Part shown: positions 8,873-40,633 of the stretch, piece after piece
Layout of the letters: every line of letters starts with the position of its first letter
Position numbering within the stretch: position 1 is the stretch's first letter
Origin: an uncultured Prevotellaceae bacterium
Lineage (GTDB): Bacteria > Bacteroidota > Bacteroidia > Bacteroidales > Muribaculaceae
Assembly (NCBI GenBank): GCA_900317325.1
Contig: ONGE01000024.1
Location: 1-41,644 of the forward strand
Direction: 5' to 3'
Length of the DNA stretch: 41,644 bases
The notes under the pieces: generated by a model
The model's input: the letters and a program-made list of their open reading frames with translations, nothing else
Told to the model about the DNA's origin: nothing
The model's database searches: none
Program-made: the position numbers and the translations under genes

Positions 8873-9928
8873 CTAGTCGTTGAGGATGAGCATGGCGTCG
8901 CCGTAGGCGCCGAAGCGGTATTTCTCCTCGATGGCGACACGGTAGGCCTCCATGGTCTCGTCGTAACCGCCGAACGATGCCTGTGCCATGAGCATGATGG
9001 AGTAGGGCATGTGGAAGTTGGAAACCAGGGCGTCACATGTCGTGCAGACGTAGGGCGGGAAGAGGAACTTGTTGCTCCAGCCGCCGTAGGGCTTGATGTG
9101 GCCGTTCATTCCCACGCAGGTCTCGAAGGCGCGCAGCACCGATGTGCCGATGGCGCACACCTTGTTGCCACCGTCGCGCAGGGTGTTGACTTTCTGTGCC
9201 AGTTCGACGCTGACGTCCATCTCCTCGCTGTCCATGCGGTGCTTGCTGAGGTCCTCGACATCGATGTCGCGGTAACTGCCCAAGCTGATGTGCATGGTGA
9301 GGAAGTCGCTGTCGATGTCGCGGATTTCCATGCGGCGCAGCAGTTCGCGCGAGAAGTGCAGTCCGGCAGCGGGAGCCACCACGGCACCTTCCTTGCTGGC
9401 AAAGATGGTCTGATAGCGCTCGGCGTCTTCGGGTTCGGGATCACGAGGGATGTAATAGGGCAGCGGTGTGTTGCCCAGATTGTAGAGGTCCTTCTTGAAC
9501 TGGTCATGGTCTCCATCGTACAGGAAACGCAGCGTTCGGCCGCGCGACGTGGTGTTGTCGATGACCTCGGCCACCATTGAATCGTCAAGTCCGAAGTACA
9601 GTTTGTTGCCGATGCGGATCTTGCGTGCGGGCTCGACAAGCACGTCCCACAACTTGTTGTTGGGGTTGAGCTCGCGCAGCAGGAAGACCTCGATGCGTGC
9701 ACCTGTTTTCTCCTTGTTGCCGAACAACTTGGCCGGGAACACCTGTGTGTCGTTGAAGACGAACAAGTCGTGCGGGTTGAAGTAGTCAATGATTTCCTTG
9801 AACACCTTGTGCTCGATTTCGCGGCTCTTCTTGTGAAGCACCATCAGGCGCGATTCATCGCGCACGGGGCTGGGATAGGAGGCAATCAGCTCCTCGGGCA
9901 TGTGGGTGTTGAATTCTGAGAGTTTCAT
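8873..9928 (-). CDS. queA: tRNA preQ1(34) S-adenosylmethionine ribosyltransferase-isomerase
   Basis: A 351-residue enzyme that transfers and rearranges the ribosyl part of S-adenosylmethionine onto 7-aminomethyl-7-deazaguanine at the wobble base of tRNA, forming epoxyqueuosine. Family signatures are clear: MKLSEF start, PEELIASYPSPVRDESRLMV, FNDTQVFPAKLFG, PYYIPRD, TVFA-like YQTIFASKEGAVVAPAAGLHFS, and the VSNFHMPYSIMLMAQASFGG C-terminal block. Length is normal. It is the last gene of DUF3098-uppP-truB-queA and is separated from truB by an 85-bp spacer filled by six 9-bp repeats. Confidence 0.97.
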   Translation of the reverse strand: MKLSEFNTHMPEELIASYPSPVRDESRLMVLHKKSREIEHKVFKEIIDYFNPHDLFVFNDTQVFPAKLFGNKEKTGARIEVFLLRELNPNNKLWDVLVEPARKIRIGNKLYFGLDDSMVAEVIDNTTSRGRTLRFLYDGDHDQFKKDLYNLGNTPLPYYIPRDPEPEDAERYQTIFASKEGAVVAPAAGLHFSRELLRRMEIRDIDSDFLTMHISLGSYRDIDVEDLSKHRMDSEEMDVSVELAQKVNTLRDGGNKVCAIGTSVLRAFETCVGMNGHIKPYGGWSNKFLFPPYVCTTCDALVSNFHMPYSIMLMAQASFGGYDETMEAYRVAIEEKYRFGAYGDAMLILND

Positions 9929-9952: not shown

Positions 9953-10006
9953 CTCTAGATGATCTAGATGTTCTAGAAACACTAGATGTTCTAGATGCTC
10001 TAGAAA
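9953..10006 (-). repeat. Tandem 9-bp repeat array A (six copies, CTAG core)
   Basis: Six contiguous 9-bp units occupy most of the truB-queA spacer. Read on the transcribed (minus) strand they are TTTCTAGAG, CATCTAGAA, CATCTAGTG, TTTCTAGAA, CATCTAGAT and CATCTAGAG. All keep CTAG at the same position and most contain the palindrome TCTAGA. No unit is lengthened or shortened. The array begins eight bases after the truB stop codon. Confidence 0.9.
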
Positions 10007-10013
10007 TTATTGT

Positions 10014-10868
10014 TCATTTAATCTGTGAGGTGCGCTTGGGCGGCGCGTCACAGCGTTGCTTGGCTTGCTTGCGGGCTGCGTGTTCGGCCTTTTGGCGTGC
10101 GGCGCGTTCGCGGTTCTCGATGCGCTCGCGTTCCAGCCGTTCGGCGGCAGCCTGTTCGGGCGAGACGTAGGTCTCGTTGTCGAGTTTGTCGACCAGGGCT
10201 TCCAGCGTGAGGCATTGATCGATGGTGATGTCGCCCACGCGAGTGCGGCGCAGGCCCGTCAGGTGCGCTCCACTGCCCAGTGCCACCCCGATGTCGCGTG
10301 CCAGGGCTCGGATGTAAGTGCCCTTGCTGCACACCACGCGCAGCTGCAGCGTGGGCTCGGCGGGTAGGCCGCATTGCAGCACTTCGATCTCGTCGATGAC
10401 CAGGGTCTTGGGCCTGATTTCCACCTCTTGACCCTTGCGAGCCATTTTATAGGCCGGCTTGCCGTCGATCTTGCAGGCCGAGAATGATGGCGGCACCTGC
10501 TCGATGCTGCCAGTGAACTGCTCTTGCAGGACGCGGTCGATGAGGTCGCGGTCGATGTGTTGCCACTCGAATGTGGCATCCACCTCGGTCTCCAGGTCAT
10601 AGCTGGGAGTGGTGGCGCCTAGCCTGAGGTCGGCGATGTATTCCTTGACGCCGGCCTGCAACTCGTCGATGCGCTTGGTGGCATGGCCGGTGCAGAGCAG
10701 TAGCACACCTGTTGCCAGCGGGTCGAGTGTGCCGGCATGGCCCACCTTGACCTGACGCGTGCCCAGATGGGTGCGCAAGACGGCACGCACTTTCTTGACC
10801 GCTGCAAATGAGGTCATCCTCAGCGGCTTGTCGATGCAGAATATTTCGCCTTCTATCGGGTTGAGCAT
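10014..10868 (-). CDS. truB: tRNA pseudouridine(55) synthase
   Basis: This enzyme makes pseudouridine 55 in the T loop of tRNAs. The catalytic Asp49 lies in GHAGTLDPLATGVLLLC, and the N-terminal CIDKPLRMTSF and central PPSFSACKIDGKPAY motifs are typical. The core ends near residue 235. The last 45-50 residues form an unusual Arg/Ala/Glu-rich, probably helical basic tail (ERLERERIENRERAARQ and onward) beyond the usual bacterial length. The frame could begin at a TTG at 10889 inside the uppP end, but ATG 10868, 13 bp after the uppP stop, gives the normal N-terminus MLNPIEGEIF. It is co-transcribed with uppP and queA. Confidence 0.95.
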   Translation of the reverse strand: MLNPIEGEIFCIDKPLRMTSFAAVKKVRAVLRTHLGTRQVKVGHAGTLDPLATGVLLLCTGHATKRIDELQAGVKEYIADLRLGATTPSYDLETEVDATFEWQHIDRDLIDRVLQEQFTGSIEQVPPSFSACKIDGKPAYKMARKGQEVEIRPKTLVIDEIEVLQCGLPAEPTLQLRVVCSKGTYIRALARDIGVALGSGAHLTGLRRTRVGDITIDQCLTLEALVDKLDNETYVSPEQAAAERLERERIENRERAARQKAEHAARKQAKQRCDAPPKRTSQIK

Positions 10869-10881
10869 TATTATATCTTTG

Positions 10882-11739
10882 TTAGTCAACCATCTGTAAC
10901 GATTGACCGCTTAACAGCAGGGCCAGAATGATGACTCCCACAACGATGCGGTACCAACCGAAGGCCTTAAAGCCGTACTTGGTCAAGAAATTCACAAACC
11001 ACTTCATGGCGAGCAGTGCCACGATGAACGCGACTACACACCCCACGACCAGGACAATGATGTTGTGGGTGGTTGCCCAATCGGCGTTCTCCTTGAACAA
11101 ATCCAGCAGGTCCAGCAACGTGGCGCCAGCCATGGTGGGAACAGCGAGGAAGAAGGAGAATTCAGCGGCCTTGCGTCGGGTGAGTTTCTGTGACATGCCT
11201 CCCACAATGGTGGCCATGCTCCTGCTCACACCGGGAATCACAGAGATACACTGGAACAGACCTATCTTGAAGGCCTTGGGCTCATCCAGCTTCACGTCCT
11301 CACTTCCCTTGTTGAAGATGCGGTCGCAGAAGAGCATGAACACACCTCCCAACACCAGCATGATGGCGACCACCAGAACGCTATCGAGCAGCCAGTCGAG
11401 TACGCCCGACTTCTTAGCTGCAAGACCGATGATGACGGCCGGCAGCACACCCACCAGCAACAGCCAGTAGAAGTACCACTTGTGCTTGAAACGCTGCCAG
11501 GGCGAAGCACCCTCGGGGGCCGGTGTGTGGTCAAGGCGGAAGAACTGTTTCCAGTAGAGCACCACTACCGACAGGATGGCTCCAAACTGGATGATGAATG
11601 TGAACGCATGCACAAAACTGTCACCTTGAGGAACGCCCAGCAGGTTCTGGGCGATGATCATGTGGCCAGTTGACGATACGGGAAGGAACTCGGTGAGTCC
11701 TTCCACGATGGCAATGATGATTGCTTGCAGCAGATCCAT
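10882..11739 (-). CDS. uppP: Undecaprenyl-diphosphate phosphatase
   Basis: A 285-residue inner-membrane enzyme (BacA/UppP family) that dephosphorylates undecaprenyl diphosphate to recycle the lipid carrier for peptidoglycan and other surface polymers; it can confer bacitracin tolerance. The conserved blocks are visible: EGLTEFLPVSSTGHMII, with Glu13, Glu17 and His26, and PGVSRSMATIVGGM with the catalytic-region Ser-Arg. About eight hydrophobic helices follow the family pattern. It lies 12 bp after the DUF3098 gene and just before truB. Confidence 0.97.
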   Translation of the reverse strand: MDLLQAIIIAIVEGLTEFLPVSSTGHMIIAQNLLGVPQGDSFVHAFTFIIQFGAILSVVVLYWKQFFRLDHTPAPEGASPWQRFKHKWYFYWLLLVGVLPAVIIGLAAKKSGVLDWLLDSVLVVAIMLVLGGVFMLFCDRIFNKGSEDVKLDEPKAFKIGLFQCISVIPGVSRSMATIVGGMSQKLTRRKAAEFSFFLAVPTMAGATLLDLLDLFKENADWATTHNIIVLVVGCVVAFIVALLAMKWFVNFLTKYGFKAFGWYRIVVGVIILALLLSGQSLQMVD

Positions 11740-19876: not shown

Positions 19877-20989
19877 CTATTGCTCGAAGGTCTCGGCGAC
19901 AAGTTTCAGGTTGTCGATGATGTCGATGTGCTGGGGGCATTGGGCCTCACACTGGCCGCACTCCAAGCACTCGCTGGCACGGCCGTGGCTCTTGGCAACC
20001 AGGTCGTAGTAGAGTTTGCTGTTGCTCTTGAGTTCAGGGAACTGCTGCGTCGTGTTGTAGAGGTTGAAATAGGCCGGGATGGCAATCTGCTGGGGGCATC
20101 CGTCACAGCAATACCGGCAGGCGGTGCAGGGAATGGCGATGGCATCGCGGATGGTCTGGGTGACTTGGGCGATGATTGCTTGCTCCTCGTCGTTGAGGGG
20201 CTGGAAGTCCTGCATGTAGGCGGTGTTGTCGTCGATCTGCTCGATGTTGCTCATGCCGCTCAATACCGTTAACACATTGGGCAGCGAGGCGCAGTAGCGA
20301 ATGGCCCAGGATGCAGGGCTTGCCTCGGGGTTATACTCCTTGAACAGGCGATCGATAGCCTCGGGGACGCGGGCCAGTGAACCGCCCTTGACGGGTTCCA
20401 TGACGATGACGGGTTTGCCATGCTTCTCACAGAGTTCATAGCACACCCTGGACTCGATGGCAGGGCTGTCCCAGTCCAGGTAGTTGATCTGCAACTGCAC
20501 ATATTCCATCTCGGGATGCTTGTCCAGAATCACGGCCAGCAGTGTTGATTCATCGTGGAACGAGAATCCGATGTGGCGGATTTTGCCCTCGTCGCGCTTG
20601 CGTGCGATGAAGCCCCATCCATCAACACTGTCGAGGGTGACGACGCGCTCACGGTTGAGGGCATGGAGCCAGTAGTAGTCGAAATAGTCCACACCGCACC
20701 GCTCCAGCTGCTCGTTGAAGATGCGTTCCATGTCGGCCTCCTCCTTGATGGCCCACACGGGCATCTTGCTGGTGACGGTGAATGACTCGCGGGGATAGCG
20801 CTTGACGACAGCCTCGCGCAAGGCTTCTTCACTCTTGCCGCCGTGATAGGGATAGGCGGTGTCGAAGTAGGTGAAGCCGCGCTCGATGAACATGTCGGCC
20901 ATCTCCTTAAATTTCTCGATGTCGATGCTCGTCTGATCGTCGGGGTTGACCAGGGGCAGTCGCATCAGTCCAAATCCAAGCTTTCTCAT
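19877..20989 (-). CDS. Aldo/keto reductase fused to a 4Fe-4S ferredoxin domain
   Basis: A 370-residue protein. Residues 1-260 form an aldo/keto reductase barrel with the usual tetrad: Asp43 and Tyr48 in FDTAYPYHGG, Lys75 in VTSK and His109 in WLHAL. The C-terminal part (about 285-355) has two ferredoxin-type cysteine clusters, CTACRYCCDGCP and CLECGQCEAQCP, each followed by Pro. This fused form is common in anaerobes; its substrate is unknown, and electron exchange between NADPH-linked reduction and the clusters is inferred. It lies downstream of GT2, separated by the 9-bp repeat array B, and may be co-transcribed with rnr-mtaB-GT2. Confidence 0.93.
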   Translation of the reverse strand: MRKLGFGLMRLPLVNPDDQTSIDIEKFKEMADMFIERGFTYFDTAYPYHGGKSEEALREAVVKRYPRESFTVTSKMPVWAIKEEADMERIFNEQLERCGVDYFDYYWLHALNRERVVTLDSVDGWGFIARKRDEGKIRHIGFSFHDESTLLAVILDKHPEMEYVQLQINYLDWDSPAIESRVCYELCEKHGKPVIVMEPVKGGSLARVPEAIDRLFKEYNPEASPASWAIRYCASLPNVLTVLSGMSNIEQIDDNTAYMQDFQPLNDEEQAIIAQVTQTIRDAIAIPCTACRYCCDGCPQQIAIPAYFNLYNTTQQFPELKSNSKLYYDLVAKSHGRASECLECGQCEAQCPQHIDIIDNLKLVAETFEQ

Positions 20990-21007: not shown

Positions 21008-21079
21008 TTTCTAGGGTCCTTAGGGTCCTTAAGGTCTTTAGGGTCATTAAAGACTTTAAGGTCATTAAAGACTTTAGGG
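21008..21079 (-). repeat. Tandem 9-bp repeat array B (eight copies, TTAA/CTAA core)
   Basis: Eight contiguous 9-bp units fill the GT2-reductase spacer. On the transcribed strand they are CCCTAAAGT, CTTTAATGA, CCTTAAAGT, CTTTAATGA, CCCTAAAGA, CCTTAAGGA, CCCTAAGGA and CCCTAGAAA. Phase is perfect with no indel, and units are near-palindromic (CCTTAAGG is a true palindrome). Copy number and consensus match array C at 23428-23499. Confidence 0.92.
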
Positions 21080-21090
21080 AGGTGGGAACC

Positions 21091-22113
21091 TTAGTAGTTG
21101 ATTTTCAGGTCGGGGAAGCGTTTCACACCGCGCAGGTAGTGGGCGGTGATGATGTTGACGCGCTCCTCGGGCAGCGCCTTGAGCAGATTGACCGAGGGCT
21201 GCGATTTGTAGTTCTTCCTCTTCTCGCGGAAGTCGCGGTGGGCCCTCACGATGGCCCAGGCGTCCCTGAAGTGGAATTTGCCCAGTGCCATGCCGAATGC
21301 CAAGGTGTCCATCAGGCGTCGCACAAATAGCAGACGCTTGCCCTCGTCGTGAGGCAGGTTCTTGTGCAGCAGCAACAGATTGTTGCGGAAGTTGAGATAG
21401 GTCTTGCGGGGATTGCCCTGCGGCAGACTGCCGCCTCCCAGGTGATAGACGTGGCTGGTGGGCACCATCATCAGATCGTTGCCCGCCAGGCGGATGCGCC
21501 AGCACAGGTCAATCTCCTCCATGTGGGCGAAGAAATCCTTGTCGAGTCCGCCCACATCTTGATACAACTGGCTGCGCACCATCAGGCAAGCCCCCGTTGC
21601 CCAGAAGACGCTCTTGGGGCCGTCGTCATACTGCCCCTTGTCCTCTTCCAGGTATTCAAAGATGCGTCCCCTGCAATAGGGATAGCCGTGGCAGTCGATA
21701 TAGCCGCCAGCAGCGCCGGCATATTCAAACATCTGCTTGCCGTCGTCGCGGTCGTGCAGCAGTTTGGGCATCACGGCGCCCACGTCGGGATGGTCCTCCA
21801 TGTATTCCAGCAGCGGGTTGAGCCATCCTTGCGGCGTGCGCACATCGCTGTTGAGCAGGACGGTATAAGGGTACATGGTCTGACGGATGGCCAAGTTGTA
21901 ACCCTCGGCGAATCCGTAGTTGACGTCAAATTTCAGTACTTTGACTTGCGGGAACTCCTGTTGGAGCACCTGCAAGCTGTCGTCGGAGCTGCCGTTGTCG
22001 GCGACGATGACGTCGGCAATCGCGTCATCGGTGCCCGCAATCACTGTGGGCAGGTAGTGTCGCAGCAGCTTGGCTCCGTTCCAGTTCAATATGATAACAG
22101 CTACTTTTTTCAT
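21091..22113 (-). CDS. Glycosyltransferase family 2, rhamnosyltransferase-like
   Basis: A 340-residue cytoplasmic glycosyltransferase with a GT-A fold at its N-terminus: VAVIILNWNG opening strand, VADNGSSDDS, NYGFAEGYN, LLNSDV (the DxD-equivalent metal site) and the acceptor-side blocks FWATGACLMVR and MEEIDLCWRIRLAG. These match the wbbL/rhamnosyltransferase-like subgroup, which builds surface polysaccharides. The C-terminal 80 residues are amphipathic and basic, suiting membrane association. Its ATG overlaps the mtaB stop codon by four bases, so the two are translationally coupled. The sugar is not predictable. Confidence 0.92.
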   Translation of the reverse strand: MKKVAVIILNWNGAKLLRHYLPTVIAGTDDAIADVIVADNGSSDDSLQVLQQEFPQVKVLKFDVNYGFAEGYNLAIRQTMYPYTVLLNSDVRTPQGWLNPLLEYMEDHPDVGAVMPKLLHDRDDGKQMFEYAGAAGGYIDCHGYPYCRGRIFEYLEEDKGQYDDGPKSVFWATGACLMVRSQLYQDVGGLDKDFFAHMEEIDLCWRIRLAGNDLMMVPTSHVYHLGGGSLPQGNPRKTYLNFRNNLLLLHKNLPHDEGKRLLFVRRLMDTLAFGMALGKFHFRDAWAIVRAHRDFREKRKNYKSQPSVNLLKALPEERVNIITAHYLRGVKRFPDLKINY

Positions 22114-23420
22114 TCGGTTATGACTTGGGCATTGACGCTCAGGTCGTCGTTAAGGGTAAGAAGTTTCACATTCACGATTTGATTGGCGAGACTCATGTCG
22201 GGCTCGACATTGACACGGATGTAGTTGTCGGTAAAGCCGTGCATCATGCCCTTGCCGCGGCCATGTTCCAGCAAGACGGGGCGCACCGTGCCCAGGTAGC
22301 GGCGAGTGAAGTCGGCCTGTTTCTCGTCGCTCAGGGCAATCATGCGTGCAGCGCGTGCCTGCTTGTCCTGCTGTGTGACGATATAGGGGATGCGCAGCGC
22401 CATCGTTCCCGGTCGCTCGCTGTAGGGGAACACGTGCAGGTGTTGCACGTTCAGCCCCTTGATGAACTCATAGCTGTCCTCGAACAGGTCGGGCGTCTCG
22501 CCTCGGGTGCCCACCATCACGTCCACACCGATGAAGCAGTCGGGCATCAGCTCACGACAGCGTTGCACCTTGTCGGCGAACAGCTGACGGTCGTAGTGGC
22601 GGCGCATGAGTTTGAGGATGGGGTCGCTGCCGCTTTGCAAGGGGATGTGGAAATGCGGCATGAACGCCCTTGACCGGGCACACCAGTCGATGATGTCATC
22701 GGTGAGCAGGTCGGGCTCGATCGACGAGATGCGGTATCGCTCGATGCCCTCGATGTCGTCGAGCGCCTTGAGCAGGTCGAGGAAATCCTCGCCCGTGTTC
22801 TTGCCGAAGTCGCCGATGTTCACGCCCGTGATGACAATTTCCTTGCCGCCCTCGGCAGCCACCTCGCGGGCTTGGGCCGTGAGGTCGGCAATCGTGCCGC
22901 TGCGGCTGCGTCCACGAGCGGCAGGGATGGTGCAGTAGCTGCACCAGTAATCGCAGCCATCCTGCACCTTGAGCCAGTAGCGCGTGCGGTCGCCATGGTC
23001 ACATGAGGGCGAGAACGTGTGTATGTCGAGCGAGGGGGTCACCTCGGTGCGCTGCTTGCGGTCCTTGAACCATTGCAGCACATACTGTGCGATCTCGGCC
23101 TTGTGCTCACTGCCCAAGACGATGTCCACCCCGGGAATCTCGGCGATTTCCTTGCCCTTGAGTTGGGCATAGCAGCCCGTTACCACCATCAGGGTGTCGG
23201 GGTATTGACGGATGAGGTGGCGAATGTGCTGCCGGCACTTGCTGTCGGCAAGGGCCGTCACGCTGCAGGTGTTGACCACGCACACGTCAGGAGTCTCGCC
23301 CCTGGCGGCGGGCACAATGCCGTGCCGGGCGAGCAATGACTGCATCGTCGCGGTCTCAGAGAAGTTGAGCTTGCAGCCCAGGGTCTCGAGTTTTACAGTA
23401 TATTGATGTTCAGCGTTCAA
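22110..23420 (-). CDS. mtaB: tRNA (N6-threonylcarbamoyladenosine(37)-C2)-methylthiotransferase
   Basis: A 436-residue radical SAM methylthiotransferase that converts t6A37 to ms2t6A in tRNA. The N-terminal cluster Cys residues are in LGCKLNFSE, NTCSVTALAD and VTGCYAQLKG. The radical SAM motif is CDYWCSYCTIPAARGRSRS, and the RISSIEPDLL and HIPLQSGSDPILKLMRR blocks follow. A TRAM-like tail closes the protein. The LGCKLN start and the central motifs separate it from MiaB (LETYGCQMN), which is also in this window. It is preceded by repeat array C and overlaps the GT2 gene by four bases. Confidence 0.95.
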   Translation of the reverse strand: MNAEHQYTVKLETLGCKLNFSETATMQSLLARHGIVPAARGETPDVCVVNTCSVTALADSKCRQHIRHLIRQYPDTLMVVTGCYAQLKGKEIAEIPGVDIVLGSEHKAEIAQYVLQWFKDRKQRTEVTPSLDIHTFSPSCDHGDRTRYWLKVQDGCDYWCSYCTIPAARGRSRSGTIADLTAQAREVAAEGGKEIVITGVNIGDFGKNTGEDFLDLLKALDDIEGIERYRISSIEPDLLTDDIIDWCARSRAFMPHFHIPLQSGSDPILKLMRRHYDRQLFADKVQRCRELMPDCFIGVDVMVGTRGETPDLFEDSYEFIKGLNVQHLHVFPYSERPGTMALRIPYIVTQQDKQARAARMIALSDEKQADFTRRYLGTVRPVLLEHGRGKGMMHGFTDNYIRVNVEPDMSLANQIVNVKLLTLNDDLSVNAQVITE

Positions 23421-23427
23421 TTTTAAT

Positions 23428-23499
23428 CGTTGAGGGGTTTTAAGGGCCTTAGGGTCTTTAAGGACTTTAAGGACATTAAGGTCTTGAGGGACTTTAGGG
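23428..23499 (-). repeat. Tandem 9-bp repeat array C (eight copies, TTAA/CTAA core)
   Basis: Eight contiguous 9-bp units occupy the rnr-mtaB spacer. On the transcribed strand they are CCCTAAAGT, CCCTCAAGA, CCTTAATGT, CCTTAAAGT, CCTTAAAGA, CCCTAAGGC, CCTTAAAAC and CCCTCAACG. The first unit begins one base after the rnr stop codon. Phase is exact, and the register, consensus and copy number match array B. Confidence 0.92.
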
Positions 23500-23500
23500 G

Positions 23501-25894
23501 CTATCTTTTGCGGCCGCGGGGCTTGCCTGAGCGGCTGGACTTCCGGCCTAATTTCCCGACTTTGTTGTCACGAACCTGACGGCGGGTGCTGTTGCCGCGA
23601 TTGCCGCGTTGCTGGCGGCGTGATGCGCTGCCGCCCTCGTACTGCATGCGCTGGCGCTCGTCGCGCGAGAGACGTCCGCTGGTGCTGCGGCTGTTCTGCT
23701 CGGTGATGGGTTCCTTGTCGATGCGATGGCTGTCGGCTGGATTCTCCTTATCGACGAGCACAAAGTCGAGCTGTTTCTTGATGAGGTCGGCGCGTGCCAC
23801 CTGGATGGTGATGGGGTCACCCAGGCGATAGACGCGGTTGCGGCGACGGCCGCGAATGCAATAGTTCTTCTCGTCGAACTCATAGAAGTCGTCGTCCAAG
23901 CCACGGATACCTACCAGACCCTCGCAATGGGTCTCCTCGAGTTCCACATACAGGCCCCACTCGGTCACGCCCGAGATGTGCCCCTTGAACACACCGCCCA
24001 AGCGCTGTCCCATGAACTCGACCTCCTTATACTTGATGGAGGCGCGCTCGGCGTTGGCGGCGAGTTGCTCTTGTGCGCTCATGTGCTTGCACTGGTCTTC
24101 CAATTTCACGGGATCCACGCTCTTGCCTCCTGCAGCATACAGGTCCAGCAAGCGGTGAACCATCAAGTCGGGGTAACGACGGATGGGTGAGGTGAAATGG
24201 GTATAGAAGTCGAATGCCAGTCCGTAGTGGCCGATGTTGGTGGCGCTGTATATTGCCTTTGCCATCGAACGGATGGCGAGGATGGAGAGCATTTCCTCCT
24301 CGGGTTTGCCCTTGGCCTGTTCCAGCATCTTGTTGATGGATTTGTTGATGTCGCGGCCCGAGCCCTTGGTGCGCACCTTGTAGCCGAAGTGTGCGGCGAT
24401 GTCGGCGAAGTTCTGGAGCTTGTCCAGATCAGGCTGGTCGTGCACGCGATAGACAAAGGACTTGGCGTTCCTGTTCTTGGGCACCTTGCCGATGTGCTCG
24501 GCCACCTTGCAGTTGGCCAGGAGCATGAACTCCTCGATGAGCTTGTTGGCATCCTGGGCCACGTGGACGTGGACAGCGGTGGGCTTGCCCTGCTCGTCGA
24601 TTTCAAACTTGATTTCCTCGCGGTTGAACGATACCGAGCCGCCCTCGTCGAAGCGGCGTTTCCTCAACTGCTTCGCCATCTCGTTGAGCACGGCGAGTTC
24701 TTCGGCCAGGTCACCCTTGCCGGTCTCCAGGATGTGCTGGGCTTCCTCGTAGGAGAAGCGCCTGTCACTGTTGGTGACGGTGTGGCAGATGGTGTATTTC
24801 TTCACTCTGGCCTCGGCGTCCATCTCCATGATGACCGAGTGGGTGAGTTTATCCTCGTGGGGGCGCAGCGAGCAAATAAAATTGCAGAGTTTCTCGGGCA
24901 GCATGGGCACGGTGCGGTCCACCAGATAGACCGATGTGGCGCGCTCATAGGCCTCCTTGTCGATGATGGAGCCCGGCGTCACATAGTGGCTCACGTCGGC
25001 GATGTGCACGCCGATTTCCCAGTTGCCGTTCTTGAGTTTCTCGATCGACAGCGCGTCGTCAAAGTCCTTGGCGTCGGCCGGGTCGATGGTGAAAGTCGTC
25101 ACACCGCGCATGTCGCGCCGCTTGGCGATTTCCTCGGGCGTGATGCCGGGCTCCAGGGCCTCGGCAGCCTGGGTGACATTCTCGGGATACTTGTAAGGTA
25201 AGCCGAACTCGGCAAGGATGGCATGGATCTCGGCATTGTTCTCACCTGCCAAGCCCAGCACGTCAATCACTTCGCCGATGGGCGAGTTGGCGTCCTCGGG
25301 CCAGTCCACGATTTTCGCCACCACCTTGTCGCCGGTCTTGCCGCCGGCGAGCTTGTCCAGCGGGATGAAGATATCAGTAGCCAGGAACTTGCTGTCGGTG
25401 GCCAGTTGTGCGAAGTATTTCAGCACCTGCAGCGTACCCACGAACACCTGCTCCTTGCGTTCCAGGATTTTCACGACCTCGGCCTCGGGTTCCAGCCCGT
25501 GTCGGGCGGCACGAATGTGCACCAACACACGGTCCCCGTTGAGCGCATGCATCGAGTTGCGCTCGGCGACCATGATGGGCAGTCCGTCATCGCTGGCGGT
25601 GTCCACGCTGTTCTTGCCGTTGCTGCGACGGATGAAGATGCCCTCGGCAACCGAAGACCGGTTCATGGCCTTGAAACTGCCGGGTCCCACCTGTGCCAGG
25701 AAGCCGTCCACAGCCAGTTGTTCCAGAATCTCGACGATGAGTGTGCGCCGTTTGGGCGTGTTGGCCCCGACGGCAGCCGACACCTGCTTGTAATTGACGG
25801 GAGCCTCTCCCTGCTCATTAAAGAAGTTGATGACGCGGTCGTGGAATTCACGCCGTTCCTGTTTCAACGATTGCAATCCGCTTTTTCTTGCCAT
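23501..25894 (-). CDS. rnr: Ribonuclease R
   Basis: A 797-residue processive 3'-5' exoribonuclease that degrades structured RNA. The N-terminal helix-turn-helix-like and cold-shock domains come first; the RNB catalytic domain follows with DPADAKDFDDALS (about 272-284) carrying the metal-binding Asp residues, and YERATSVYLVDRTVPMLPEKL and HFTSPIRRYPDLMVHR further on. An S1 domain lies near 640-725. The last 70 residues are a Gly/Arg/Lys/Ser-rich basic tail, as in many RNase R proteins. It has a clear promoter and is the first gene of the possible unit rnr-mtaB-GT2-reductase. Confidence 0.96.
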   Translation of the reverse strand: MARKSGLQSLKQERREFHDRVINFFNEQGEAPVNYKQVSAAVGANTPKRRTLIVEILEQLAVDGFLAQVGPGSFKAMNRSSVAEGIFIRRSNGKNSVDTASDDGLPIMVAERNSMHALNGDRVLVHIRAARHGLEPEAEVVKILERKEQVFVGTLQVLKYFAQLATDSKFLATDIFIPLDKLAGGKTGDKVVAKIVDWPEDANSPIGEVIDVLGLAGENNAEIHAILAEFGLPYKYPENVTQAAEALEPGITPEEIAKRRDMRGVTTFTIDPADAKDFDDALSIEKLKNGNWEIGVHIADVSHYVTPGSIIDKEAYERATSVYLVDRTVPMLPEKLCNFICSLRPHEDKLTHSVIMEMDAEARVKKYTICHTVTNSDRRFSYEEAQHILETGKGDLAEELAVLNEMAKQLRKRRFDEGGSVSFNREEIKFEIDEQGKPTAVHVHVAQDANKLIEEFMLLANCKVAEHIGKVPKNRNAKSFVYRVHDQPDLDKLQNFADIAAHFGYKVRTKGSGRDINKSINKMLEQAKGKPEEEMLSILAIRSMAKAIYSATNIGHYGLAFDFYTHFTSPIRRYPDLMVHRLLDLYAAGGKSVDPVKLEDQCKHMSAQEQLAANAERASIKYKEVEFMGQRLGGVFKGHISGVTEWGLYVELEETHCEGLVGIRGLDDDFYEFDEKNYCIRGRRRNRVYRLGDPITIQVARADLIKKQLDFVLVDKENPADSHRIDKEPITEQNSRSTSGRLSRDERQRMQYEGGSASRRQQRGNRGNSTRRQVRDNKVGKLGRKSSRSGKPRGRKR

Positions 25895-25994: not shown

Positions 25995-26025
25995 TTGGCA
26001 TTTCGCTTGACATGCACTATCTTTG
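25995..26025 (+). promoter_or_regulatory. Promoter of the GH25 gene pair
   Basis: TTGG at 25995-25998, a 19-bp spacer and TATCTTTG at 26018-26025. An open frame that appears to begin at TTG 26023 starts inside this element, so the real start codon must be downstream (26059 or 26074). Confidence 0.7.
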
Positions 26026-26058
26026 CAGCCACCTTTTACTCTGACGATAGCAATAGCA

Positions 26059-27627
26059 ATGGTTTTTACACGCATGTACAAGACGATACTATATTCCATT
26101 TTAGCGTTCCTTATTTTGCTTCTGCCTCAGGCCGGAGCAGCTTCACCGCAGCAGGCTGACATCAACAAGCCTACCCGTGAGCGCGTCAAGAAAGACAGCA
26201 AGAAGGCCGACGACAAGAAAGAGGCCAACAAGGATACCAAAAAAGATACCAAGAAGGATGAAGCCGTCAAGAAGGCTCAGCCTAAGGCCGATGTAGTGTC
26301 ACAGCCTGTCAAAAAGGAAGTGAAGAAAGACGAAGGCGACAAGAAGAATGCCGATGTCAAGAAAGATGACGTCAAAAAGGACGGGGTCGTTGAAGAGAAG
26401 AAGGAGCAAAAGTCTGCTCCTCCCGCACTCACGCCGGCCAGTGTCGTGTATGACGGTATAGACGTGTCGAAACATCAGGGCAAAATCAATTGGGATGCCA
26501 TCAAGAAGAATTCCCGTATCAAGTATGTCTATATCAAGGCTACCGAAGGCAGCGACCTGGTTGACGAGTGCTATCAGAGGAACATTCGTGAGGCCCGTCA
26601 TGCCGGTTTGAAAGTGGGCAGCTACCATTACTTGAGCAACAGGTCGAGCGTGACGACCCAGTTCAAGAACTTTGCCTCCACCGCCAACCGCGACGAGCAG
26701 GATCTCATTCCCGTCATCGATGTCGAGGTGTGCAAGCAGTGGAGCGCTCAGCAGCTCAGGGACAGCCTGATGGTGTTTGCCCGCATGGTCGAGGACTACT
26801 ATGGCTGCAAGCCCATTATCTACACCTATGAGACCTTTTTCAAGTCATATCTGGGAAAGGCGTTTGCCCATTATCCCATCTTTATCGCCAAGTATCCCAA
26901 GAATCCTGACGACAAGCCCAACATCAACGGCGTGAAGTGGTTGATTTGGCAATTCTCGGAGACCGGCCGCATCAACGGCATCAACGGGTATGTCGATATG
27001 GGCAGGTTCAACACCGGAGTCTCAATCAATGATATCCTGTATCGTCCCCCCAAGGGTAAGCCCAAGATCAGCGTCAAGGATGCCGTGGACCGCAATAAGC
27101 CCAAACCCACGACCATCAACATGAAGGAGGAAGCCAAACCGAAGGAAACTCCTGCATCGACCGCCAAGCAGAAAGAGGACGCCAACAAGAAGGCCGAGAT
27201 AGAAAAGAGGAAAGCAGAATCCGATAAGAAGAAAGCTCAGGCCGAAGCCGAAGCCAAGGCGAAAGCCGAAGCCAAGAACAAGGCCAAGGCCGAAGCCAAA
27301 GCCAGGGCTGACGCCAAGGCCAAAGCCGAAGCTGATGCCAAAGCAAAAGCCAAAGCTAAGGCCGAAGCCGAAGCTAAAGCGCGCGCCAAAGCCAAGGCCG
27401 AAGCTGACGCCAAGGCTAAAGCCGAAGCCGAAGCCAAAGCCAAGCGCAAAGCCGAAGCCAAGAAAAACCGTGAGGCCCAGGCCAAGCAATCCAAGAAGAA
27501 GTCAAATTCGGCTGTGAACTTGTTCAGCGGCTCGCGAGGCATCTCGCAGACGCAGCGCAACGACAGCATCCGTTCTGCTAAAACCCAAGGCCGTAAAACA
27601 AATAAAAGTTCGGCCGACAATGATTAA
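26059..27627 (+). CDS. Exported GH25 lysozyme with Lys-rich linker and Ala/Lys tail
   Basis: About 522 residues. A signal peptide (hydrophobic 8-24, then QAGAA) is followed by a Lys/Asp-rich low-complexity region (about 40-120). A GH25 muramidase domain (about 129-330) has Asp135 in YDGIDVSKHQG and Asp221/Glu223 in LIPVIDVEV, the family's active-site residues; it cleaves the MurNAc-GlcNAc bond of peptidoglycan. Then come a Pro/Lys linker and about 110 residues of Ala-Lys-Glu repeats (AEAEAKAKAEAK-like), predicted as one long charged helix similar to TolA domain II. The start at 26059 is set by the promoter; Met at 26074 is the alternative. Its end overlaps the next GH25 gene by eight bases. 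Confidence 0.9.
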   Translation: MVFTRMYKTILYSILAFLILLLPQAGAASPQQADINKPTRERVKKDSKKADDKKEANKDTKKDTKKDEAVKKAQPKADVVSQPVKKEVKKDEGDKKNADVKKDDVKKDGVVEEKKEQKSAPPALTPASVVYDGIDVSKHQGKINWDAIKKNSRIKYVYIKATEGSDLVDECYQRNIREARHAGLKVGSYHYLSNRSSVTTQFKNFASTANRDEQDLIPVIDVEVCKQWSAQQLRDSLMVFARMVEDYYGCKPIIYTYETFFKSYLGKAFAHYPIFIAKYPKNPDDKPNINGVKWLIWQFSETGRINGINGYVDMGRFNTGVSINDILYRPPKGKPKISVKDAVDRNKPKPTTINMKEEAKPKETPASTAKQKEDANKKAEIEKRKAESDKKKAQAEAEAKAKAEAKNKAKAEAKARADAKAKAEADAKAKAKAKAEAEAKARAKAKAEADAKAKAEAEAKAKRKAEAKKNREAQAKQSKKKSNSAVNLFSGSRGISQTQRNDSIRSAKTQGRKTNKSSADND

Positions 27628-40612: not shown

Positions 40613-40633
40613 TAAAACTTAAAACTTAAAACT
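40613..40633 (+). repeat. Three tandem TAAAACT heptamers
   Basis: Three exact copies of TAAAACT run from 40613 to 40633, ending 7 bp before the radical SAM start codon. An A-rich tract at this place may help ribosome binding, as Bacteroidetes leaders rarely use Shine-Dalgarno sites. Confidence 0.7.

What the first reader, a model, noticed from the sequence alone, without database searches (positions are those of the whole stretch)
23428..23499. Eight-copy 9-bp repeat array fills the rnr-mtaB spacer
The whole spacer after the rnr stop codon is eight 9-bp units in exact phase on the consensus CCYTAARNN. Units differ in sequence but never in length. Random drift or slippage would be expected to break the phase, so a constraint on spacing or recent growth by slippage with mutation is implied. 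The units are near-palindromic and could pair with each other in RNA. I know of no named element of this kind.
Basis: seen in the sequence. Interest (0 to 1): 0.75.

Follow-up and report, generated by a model that had tools for sequence, protein, structure and literature searches.

The report
Shifting 9-base repeats between operon genes
The gap between two genes of a gut bacterium is filled by eight copies of a 9-letter DNA unit, one of many short repeat arrays in this genome's gene-to-gene gaps that can change length by whole units and swap type between related species, which makes it a striking local version of a known but unexplained kind of bacterial repeat.

Summary
Eight 9-bp units occupy 23428-23499 (minus strand CCYTAARNN; 5 of 8 strict), 72 of the 80 bp between rnr and mtaB. 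It is not a lone element. In 537 kb of the genome not chosen for arrays, 38 of 73 intergenic tandem-repeat rows have period 7 (21; shuffles 0.15) or 9 (17; shuffles 1.0). The closest relative found has the same array with four more units; the next species has a different 9-mer array in that spacer. CCYTAAR arrays occur in 39 of 247 sampled genomes of the family and in none of 295 sampled outside it. Arrays are depleted between divergent genes. In TCTAGANNN arrays the 6-bp core is held while the linker is nearly random, so neutral slippage alone does not suffice. Best reading: slippage-grown intercistronic arrays with constrained cores, probably acting in polycistronic mRNA; that last step is inferred. 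The kind is known (long simple sequence repeats, intergenic heptamers), its function open. New here, as far as searched: the 9-bp core/linker grammar and swapping of families at one spacer.

The parts
23428..23499 (-). eight-unit 9-bp array, consensus CCYTAARNN (family C9)
23421..23500 (-). whole rnr-mtaB spacer (80 bp)
23501..25894 (-). rnr, ribonuclease R, upstream gene; stop TAG one base before the array
   Evidence: TIGR02063, E 1.2e-227, above cut-off
22110..23420 (-). mtaB, tRNA methylthiotransferase, downstream gene; TTG start as listed
   Evidence: TIGR01579, 390.1 bits, above cut-off
21008..21079 (-). second C9 array, eight 9-mers in phase, the last one degenerate, in the spacer after the glycosyltransferase-like gene
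   Evidence: the sister lacks 18 bp there as two 9-bp gaps
21091..22113 (-). glycosyltransferase-like gene upstream of the second array
   Evidence: matches below family cut-offs
19877..20989 (-). oxidoreductase-like gene downstream of the second array (weak matches only)
   Evidence: below cut-offs
9953..10006 (-). 9-bp array of the TCTAGANNN family between truB and queA
10014..10889 (-). truB, upstream of the TCTAGANNN array
   Evidence: TIGR00431, above cut-off
8873..9928 (-). queA, downstream of the TCTAGANNN array
   Evidence: NF001140, above cut-off
40613..40633 (+). 7-bp array (TAAAACT)x3, 7 bp before a start codon

Best explanation
The array is one copy of a genome-wide set of short-period (7 and 9 bp) intercistronic tandem arrays. 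Shown here: exact period; several families with shared cores at unrelated loci; whole-unit copy-number change between sister species in many, not all, compared arrays; one family standing where another stands in a related species; depletion between divergent genes; conserved core with a near-random linker in the TCTAGANNN family; orientation and position bias for two heptamer families. Inferred: arrays grow and shrink by replication slippage or unequal exchange of whole units; purifying selection keeps the core of each family; the arrays act in the polycistronic mRNA as spacer modules between a stop codon and the next start codon, setting distance, structure and base make-up there. For the C9 nonamer the most likely local role is a tolerated and perhaps useful spacer that separates translation of rnr from mtaB, not a switch.
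For:: 27 stretches not chosen for arrays (537,324 bp): intergenic TRF rows of period 7 = 21 (shuffle 0.15) and 9 = 17 (shuffle 1.0); 22 of 178 co-directional spacers of 25-300 bp carry a 7- or 9-bp array; in own-genome stretches two C9 units with gap 9 occur 25 times, with any other gap of 5-13 at most once; free middle units of TCTAGANNN have 1.53-1.82 bit per core position and 0.06-0.25 per linker position (38 triplets); in 6 of 10 C9 spacers compared with the sister species there are gaps of exactly 9n: window|17 (2 x 9), window|19 (36), L010|3, L012|5, L020|5 and L012|7 (9 each). C9 in window and L059, a WTCCGTTNN array in L060, their nearest neighbour on the tree; 93 co-directional, 16 convergent, 11 divergent arrays against 87,919, 26,426 and 38,094 bp (divergent depletion p = 9e-6, arrays not independent); ACTARRR 18 of 22 sense, 15 of those 18 ending within 12 nt of a start codon; TTAGRAR 14 of 16 sense, 10 of those 14 starting within 10 nt of a stop codon; identical adjacent TCTAGANNN linkers 7 of 66, expected 2.07, p = 0.005.
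Against: C9 itself has no significant strand preference (21 of 32 sense, p = 0.11) and its sense RNA is not specially folded at the window locus (z -1.33), so the mRNA role is weakest for the very array in question. ACTARRR spacers are more folded than controls (median sense z -2.30, 12 spacers), against a simple unstructured leader. In 16 of 38 same-genus loci rnr and mtaB have no such spacer, so the array is dispensable there. Of the 10 C9 pairs, L013|7 and L021|6 do not align in clean units, L017|8 has no unit change, and L183|1 has an array in the sister only. No expression data were seen. Gene calls are greedy longest-ORF calls, not those of a trained caller.
Confidence: 0.5

Rival explanations
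1. Neutral long simple sequence repeats: slippage with mutation, no function; found in spacers only because genes do not tolerate them.
For: Whole-unit length changes; adjacent linker duplication; arrays absent at the orthologous site in 16 of 38 loci; precedent of intergenic heptamers without a known role (PMC6344855 passages; PMC4692102 discussion). Period 9 is also common inside called genes (28 rows against none for period 7), as length alone would allow.
Against: TCTAGA core held at about 95% (216 of 228 positions) in free middle units while linkers approach random; the same consensus at unrelated loci and across species; sense orientation and stop/start positioning of two heptamer families, with A-rich units next to the start codon.
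Confidence: 0.25
2. Multivalent binding platform: a sequence-specific DNA- or RNA-binding protein (for example a ribbon-helix-helix-type DNA binder, an analogy from memory) occupies successive cores at 7- or 9-bp spacing, and its site is what is conserved.
For: Core conserved, linker free, exact period; palindromic core in TCTAGANNN and near-palindromic CCTTAAGGW; TCTAGA arrays in 47 of 61 own-genus genomes but 3 of 221 genomes of other genera in the family, as a lineage-specific binder would give.
Against: No candidate protein was sought; arrays are depleted in divergent, promoter-bearing spacers; several unrelated cores would need several binders.
Confidence: 0.17
3. mRNA hairpin: the array folds in the transcript and acts as a terminator, attenuator or decay barrier.
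For: Sense z about -4.2 for the two other window arrays; median sense z -3.00 for 21 C9 spacers and -4.06 for 10 TCTAGA spacers against -0.23 for 60 sampled of 360 control spacers.
Against: The window's own array: sense z -1.33, antisense -4.75; sense more stable than antisense in only 8 of 21 C9 spacers (8 of 10 for TCTAGA), as plain self-complementary repeats could give; by eye no T-run follows the array on the sense strand.
Confidence: 0.15
4. Tandem stop codons: each unit carries TAA/TAG so that stray translation is caught between genes.
For: C9, TCTAGA, ACTARRR and TTAGRAR units contain TAA or TAG; a 7-bp period puts stops in all three frames (seen in sequence).
Against: 9-mer stops show no clear frame preference relative to the upstream gene: C9 5/6/4 (15 arrays) and TCTAGA 5/2/4 (11 arrays) for frames 0/1/2; WTCCGTTNN arrays carry no stop in their core.
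Confidence: 0.04
5. Mobile element (MITE- or REP-like) that inserts as an array.
For: Family replacement in one spacer (also L012|6 and L021|10, where the sister has other sequence); recurrent composite spacers with a short hairpin.
Against: By eye no terminal inverted repeats, target duplication or fixed element length at the sites compared; many lengths change by whole units instead.
Confidence: 0.05

Closest known systems
Intergenic TAACTGA heptamer direct repeats (MacGregor 2015, PMC4679880: abstract, introduction, sections 10 and 23 read)
   Same: Intergenic short-unit arrays; many just upstream of start codons; patchy among relatives; two near-identical strains differ mostly by 7-nt indels; relatives can have shorter intergenic regions without repeats; some Bacteroidetes examples.
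   Different: One heptamer there; here several families of period 7 and 9 in one genome, with a core/linker split and different families in one orthologous spacer.
GGGNATC heptamer repeats of Xanthomonas and Nostoc (Rehm 2015, PMC4692102: abstract, introduction, discussion read)
   Same: Between aligned ORFs, under-represented between divergent ORFs, near gene ends, mostly between the same genes in related species with varied length and sequence.
   Different: G-quadruplex-forming 7-mer with a preference for four units; here 9-mers rich in TTAA or CTAG.
Long simple sequence repeats, LSSR (Mrazek 2007; not read, known only as cited in PMC4679880 and PMC4692102) and the SPADE survey (PMC6344855, two passages seen)
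   Same: Units of 1-11 nt; heptamers the most abundant intergenic tandem repeats over many prokaryotes, function unknown.
   Different: Here 9-mers are about as frequent as 7-mers (17 and 21 rows), and per-position constraint is measured.
Cyanobacterial STRR heptanucleotides (recalled; Calothrix heptanucleotides are mentioned in PMC4692102)
   Same: Short tandem units in many copies (recalled).
   Different: Other unit sequence and lineage; not compared further.
Tandem repeats of archaeal Borg elements (PMC9879509, start of abstract in the search listing only)
   Same: Rapidly evolving, recently formed tandem repeats.
   Different: Extrachromosomal archaeal elements; not compared further.

Membership tests
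Intergenic long simple sequence repeat (unit 5-11 nt) | Head-to-tail units of constant length beyond chance | tested here: met
Intergenic long simple sequence repeat (unit 5-11 nt) | Mostly intergenic, between aligned ORFs, rare between divergent ORFs | tested here: met
   pooled over six families; gene calls are ORF-based; 20 matches (12 of them C9) fell inside called ORFs and 5 at edges or in long gaps, and were not counted
Intergenic long simple sequence repeat (unit 5-11 nt) | Length differs between close relatives by whole units | tested here: met
   6 of 10 C9 spacers have gaps of exactly 9n, among them window|19 (36) and window|17 (2 x 9)
[quoted passage not shown]
   9-bp unit, different sequence; 1 of 21 sense C9 arrays ends within 12 nt of a start codon. 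ACTARRR heptamers of the same genomes meet the position part (15 of 18) but not the sequence
G-quadruplex heptamers (GGGNATC) | A G-tract of three or more in every unit | tested here: not met
   In the window array only some units have GGG on the plus strand (read by eye)
REP / MITE (including BrickBuilt, PMC4596501, search listing only) | Defined element ends, terminal inverted repeats or a linked transposase | tested here: inconclusive
   None seen by eye in the sister alignments; no search for a transposase was made
Neutral microsatellite | All unit positions vary alike | tested here: not met
   clear for TCTAGANNN; for C9 (90 triplets) positions 3, 7 and 9 vary most, 2 less, while 1, 4, 5 and 8 are nearly fixed. 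Near-copies from the sister species are not fully removed

The most novel reading that the evidence does not exclude
These arrays are a lineage-specific punctuation system of polycistronic mRNA (or of operon DNA): several interchangeable 7- and 9-bp words, each with a fixed core and a free linker read at exact spacing by an undescribed multivalent binding factor, placed after stop codons and before start codons, expandable in whole units and exchangeable between families during evolution.
Probability: 0.22. Interest if true: 0.85.

Novelty: new variant of a known kind. Interest (0 to 1): 0.5.

Why it matters
Heptamer arrays are reported as the most abundant intergenic tandem repeats over a wide range of prokaryotes, with 'no clear clue' to function (PMC6344855, passages). 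This genus carries several families at once, patchily, with 61 species sampled. That allows the comparisons that can separate mutation bias from selection: core against linker, position against start and stop codons, and gain, loss and swapping at one orthologous spacer.

Tried and rejected
Stop-codon barrier for 9-mers: no clear frame preference. Sense-strand hairpin as the general rule for C9: not supported. A GGCGGATGCC hairpin as a repeat family of its own: 3 intergenic and 2 coding exact copies (both orientations) in about 24% of the genome, so not pursued. Reverse-complement linkers, as fold-back copying would give: 0 of 66 adjacent pairs, 2.35 expected. Assembly artefact: unlikely, since the array is in two separate assemblies (window and L059) with conserved ends and a different middle.

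Error made and corrected: and the first tree used the wrong rnr frame for L060, L064, L067, L068 and L071, which made L060 look spacer-less. re-read all 38 spacers and one search repeated the tree; only searches are used for spacer states. The notebook entries that rest and one search are superseded. In one search the automatic family labels are crude: L090 is scored 'other' though it has TCCGTT units by eye, and L069, L071, L084, L085 and L092, labelled by a heptamer family, also have TCCGTT or TCCAT units by eye.

Counting choices: 20 matches inside called ORFs and 5 at stretch edges or in long gaps were left out of the position counts; the stretches were picked around known C9, TCTAGANNN and other array places, and sister-species copies are only removed when their sequence context is identical. 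The sister comparison covers 83 of 567 spacers, those with both anchors found. In 'other' was counted as not array for the array/none changes. Literature searches: no title or abstract start in the listings described this 9-mer family. Searches looked up passages only.

Full report
Observation. The minus strand between rnr and mtaB reads TAG (rnr stop), one C, then eight 9-mers at 23499-23428, then seven bases and the listed TTG of mtaB. Lag-9 identity is 47 of 71 against 19.1 in 2000 dinucleotide shuffles (maximum 32), and 0 of 2000 shuffles reach the observed periodicity at any lag 3-19. The flanking genes are ribonuclease R and tRNA methylthiotransferase MtaB, both above family cut-offs. 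Five of 8 units fit CCYTAARNN strictly.

Not alone. The window holds a second array of the same family at 21008-21079 and one of TCTAGANNN at 9953-10006, both between co-directional genes. In the whole genome (3.47 Mb), two adjacent strict units match 34 times against 1 for the reversed pattern. In 27 stretches not chosen for arrays (537,324 bp, 64,005 bp intergenic) TRF gives 73 intergenic rows, of which 21 have period 7 and 17 period 9, against 0.15 and 1.0 in shuffled spacers; periods 8 and 10-13 together give 14 against 4.65. In called genes the same search gives 28 rows of period 9 and none of period 7. In the same stretches 22 of 178 co-directional, 6 of 37 convergent and 2 of 33 divergent spacers of 25-300 bp carry a 7- or 9-bp array. 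Families seen by eye include the 7-mers TTAGRAR, ACTARRR, GGTTAAA and CTCTAAA, and the 9-mers CCYTAARGN (C9), TCTAGANNN, CTCYGAGAN, AACGGATNN (= WTCCGTTNN) and CCAATTGGA.

Distribution. The relatives found by mtaB are records titled Muribaculaceae, Prevotellaceae, Porphyromonadaceae or Bacteroidales, many from rumen or gut; the closest is RGIG2290 from goat duodenum (L059). In 61 genomes of the same genus, the window's own included: C9 x3 in 14 (reversed control in 4), ACTARRR x4 in 31 (control 0), TTAGRAR x3 in 27 (control 2), TCTAGANNN x3 in 47 (control 1), WTCCGTTNN x3 in 8 (control 0). In 247 genomes of the family: TCTAGANNN in 18 of 26 own-genus and 3 of 221 other genomes (control in 2 of 247); C9 in 8 of 26 own-genus and 31 of 221 others, 12 of 30 genera (control in 6 of 247, with 8 and 12 control hits in two genomes of one genus). 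In 296 genomes of the phylum only the window's own has C9 x3; none of the other 295 does (control in 1). That sample holds no other member of the family.

Dynamics. The sister species G061 (the genome of L059) is 92.9% identical in aligned DNA (alignments of 800 bp or more). Of 83 orthologous spacers compared (of 567), 61 have no 7/9 array, 14 have one in both, 5 only here, 3 only in the sister. At rnr-mtaB the sister has 116 bp against 80, a clean 36-bp (four-unit) gap, with both array ends kept. At the second window array the sister lacks 18 bp as two 9-bp gaps and has one extra base elsewhere. Four other C9 spacers show a single 9-bp gap (L010|3, L012|5, L020|5, L012|7, some with 1-7 further bases). 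Of the remaining four C9 pairs, L017|8 has no unit change, L013|7 and L021|6 do not align in clean units, and L183|1 has an array in the sister only. Heptamer spacers show 14-bp gaps (L012|12 twice, L017|11) and a 7-bp gap (L020|5), but also a 13-bp gap (L013|1). In L012|6 an ACTARRR array stands where the sister has other sequence with AATTCGT repeats; L021|10 likewise has no array in the sister.

One spacer over the genus. After correction of a frame error, the rnr-mtaB spacer in 38 loci is labelled C9 in 2, WTCCGTTNN in 10 (one of them also TTTAGG-type), TTTAGG-type in 4 counting that one, GGAGT-type in 4, unclassified in 3 and absent (0-17 bp or overlap) in 16. On the mtaB DNA tree window + L059 (support 100/100) join L060 (98/84), which has a WTCCGTTNN spacer. 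So one 9-mer family replaced another in the same place. Array against none needs at least 9 changes; the backbone is poorly resolved, so this number is rough.

Core and linker. Where the units on both sides match the family and the middle unit is left free (own, sister, named and small pattern loci): TCTAGANNN (38 triplets) has 1.53-1.82 bits at each core position and 0.06-0.25 at the linker; C9 (90 triplets) is nearly fixed at positions 1, 4, 5 and 8, varies most at 3, 7 and 9 and less at 2; ACTARRR (140) is nearly fixed at ACTA and mostly A or G at RRR. In the own-genome stretches two matching units occur at the exact period 40 (ACTARRR), 24 (TTAGRAR), 26 (TCTAGANNN) and 25 (C9) times, and at the other gaps tested 0-2 times; WTCCGTTNN gives only 1 and 1, too few to tell. 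Linkers in one array differ from each other, yet identical neighbours occur 7 times in 66 against 2.07 expected, p = 0.005 (21 arrays). This fits local unit duplication plus constraint on the core; neutral decay would hit the core too.

Position. Pooling own, sister, eight other genomes of the genus and 36 named loci (tests): 93 arrays between co-directional, 16 between convergent, 11 between divergent genes, against 87,919, 26,426 and 38,094 bp. ACTARRR is sense in 18 of 22 and ends within 12 nt of a start codon in 15 of the 18; in the 16 sense arrays within 20 nt of a start codon the two units next to the start are A-rich (27-31% G in RRR) and the others G-rich (61-73%). TTAGRAR is sense in 14 of 16 and starts within 10 nt of a stop codon in 10 of the 14. 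WTCCGTTNN is sense in 6 of 6. C9 is sense in 21 of 32 (p = 0.11). The arrays are not independent. In Bacteroidetes, initiation lacks Shine-Dalgarno sequences and is tuned by mRNA structure and by nucleotides upstream of the start, including A at -3 (PMC6847099, abstract), which would fit A-rich units there. This bears on the heptamers, and only by analogy on C9.

Structure. The window array folds poorly in the sense strand (z -1.33) and well in the other (z -4.75); the two other window arrays give sense z about -4.2. Over 21 C9 spacers the median z is -3.00 sense and -3.53 antisense, sense being the more stable in 8 of 21; over 10 TCTAGA spacers -4.06 and -2.85 (sense more stable in 8 of 10); ACTARRR spacers give -2.30 sense (12) and TTAGRAR -1.10 (8); 60 sampled of 360 control spacers give -0.23. 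Self-pairing is a property of the palindromic repeats, not clearly of the transcript.

Known work. Intergenic heptamer arrays with similar habits are in print: TAACTGA in Beggiatoaceae, Cyanobacteria and some Bacteroidetes (PMC4679880; sections read), GGGNATC in Xanthomonas and Nostoc (PMC4692102; sections read), and a survey in which heptamers are the most abundant intergenic tandem repeats without known function (PMC6344855; passages). The window array belongs to that kind by unit size, location and unit-step variation, but has a 9-bp unit, no TAACTGA and no G-tract in each unit. My searches listed no description of these 9-mer families in titles or abstract starts; most subscription papers are not held.

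Verdict. It is a member of a multi-family array system of this genus and family. Slippage growth and core constraint are supported; the function is inferred and least certain for C9 itself.

Noticed in passing
L175 432-537 and L015 7270-7340 (own-genome stretches); in part L012 17732-17756 and L185 13871-13943: Composite operon spacers: stop codon, TTAGGAR-type repeats (other or unclear repeats in L012 and L185), a short hairpin such as TTGGCGGATGCCAA, then ACTARRR heptamers ending near the next start codon.
   Followed up: partly
ACTARRR arrays next to start codons (pooled loci): The two heptamers next to the start codon are A-rich and the farther ones G-rich, a gradient along the array (16 arrays).
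   Followed up: partly
L179 1019-1094, L022 14024-14046, L171 17811-17832: Nine-bp families AACGGATNN and ACAATAART; in L179 and L022 an inverted second arm follows, so that the array could form a long hairpin (by eye).
   Followed up: no
L021 16392-16507: An ACTARRR array with a 42-bp block of six units repeated in tandem, a sign of recent multi-unit duplication.
   Followed up: no
G073 and G116 (one other genus of the family): The reversed control pattern of C9 gives 8 and 12 hits there, which suggests yet another 9-bp array family in that genus.
   Followed up: no
window 27239-27461: In-gene 6/18/30-bp repeats (GCCAAA-rich) in an ORF at 26023-27627 with TolA-like matches below the family cut-offs.
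   Followed up: no
G027: A same-genus genome whose listed TTAGRAR arrays are mostly uniform TTAGGAA, unlike the mixed arrays of most other listed genomes.
   Followed up: no
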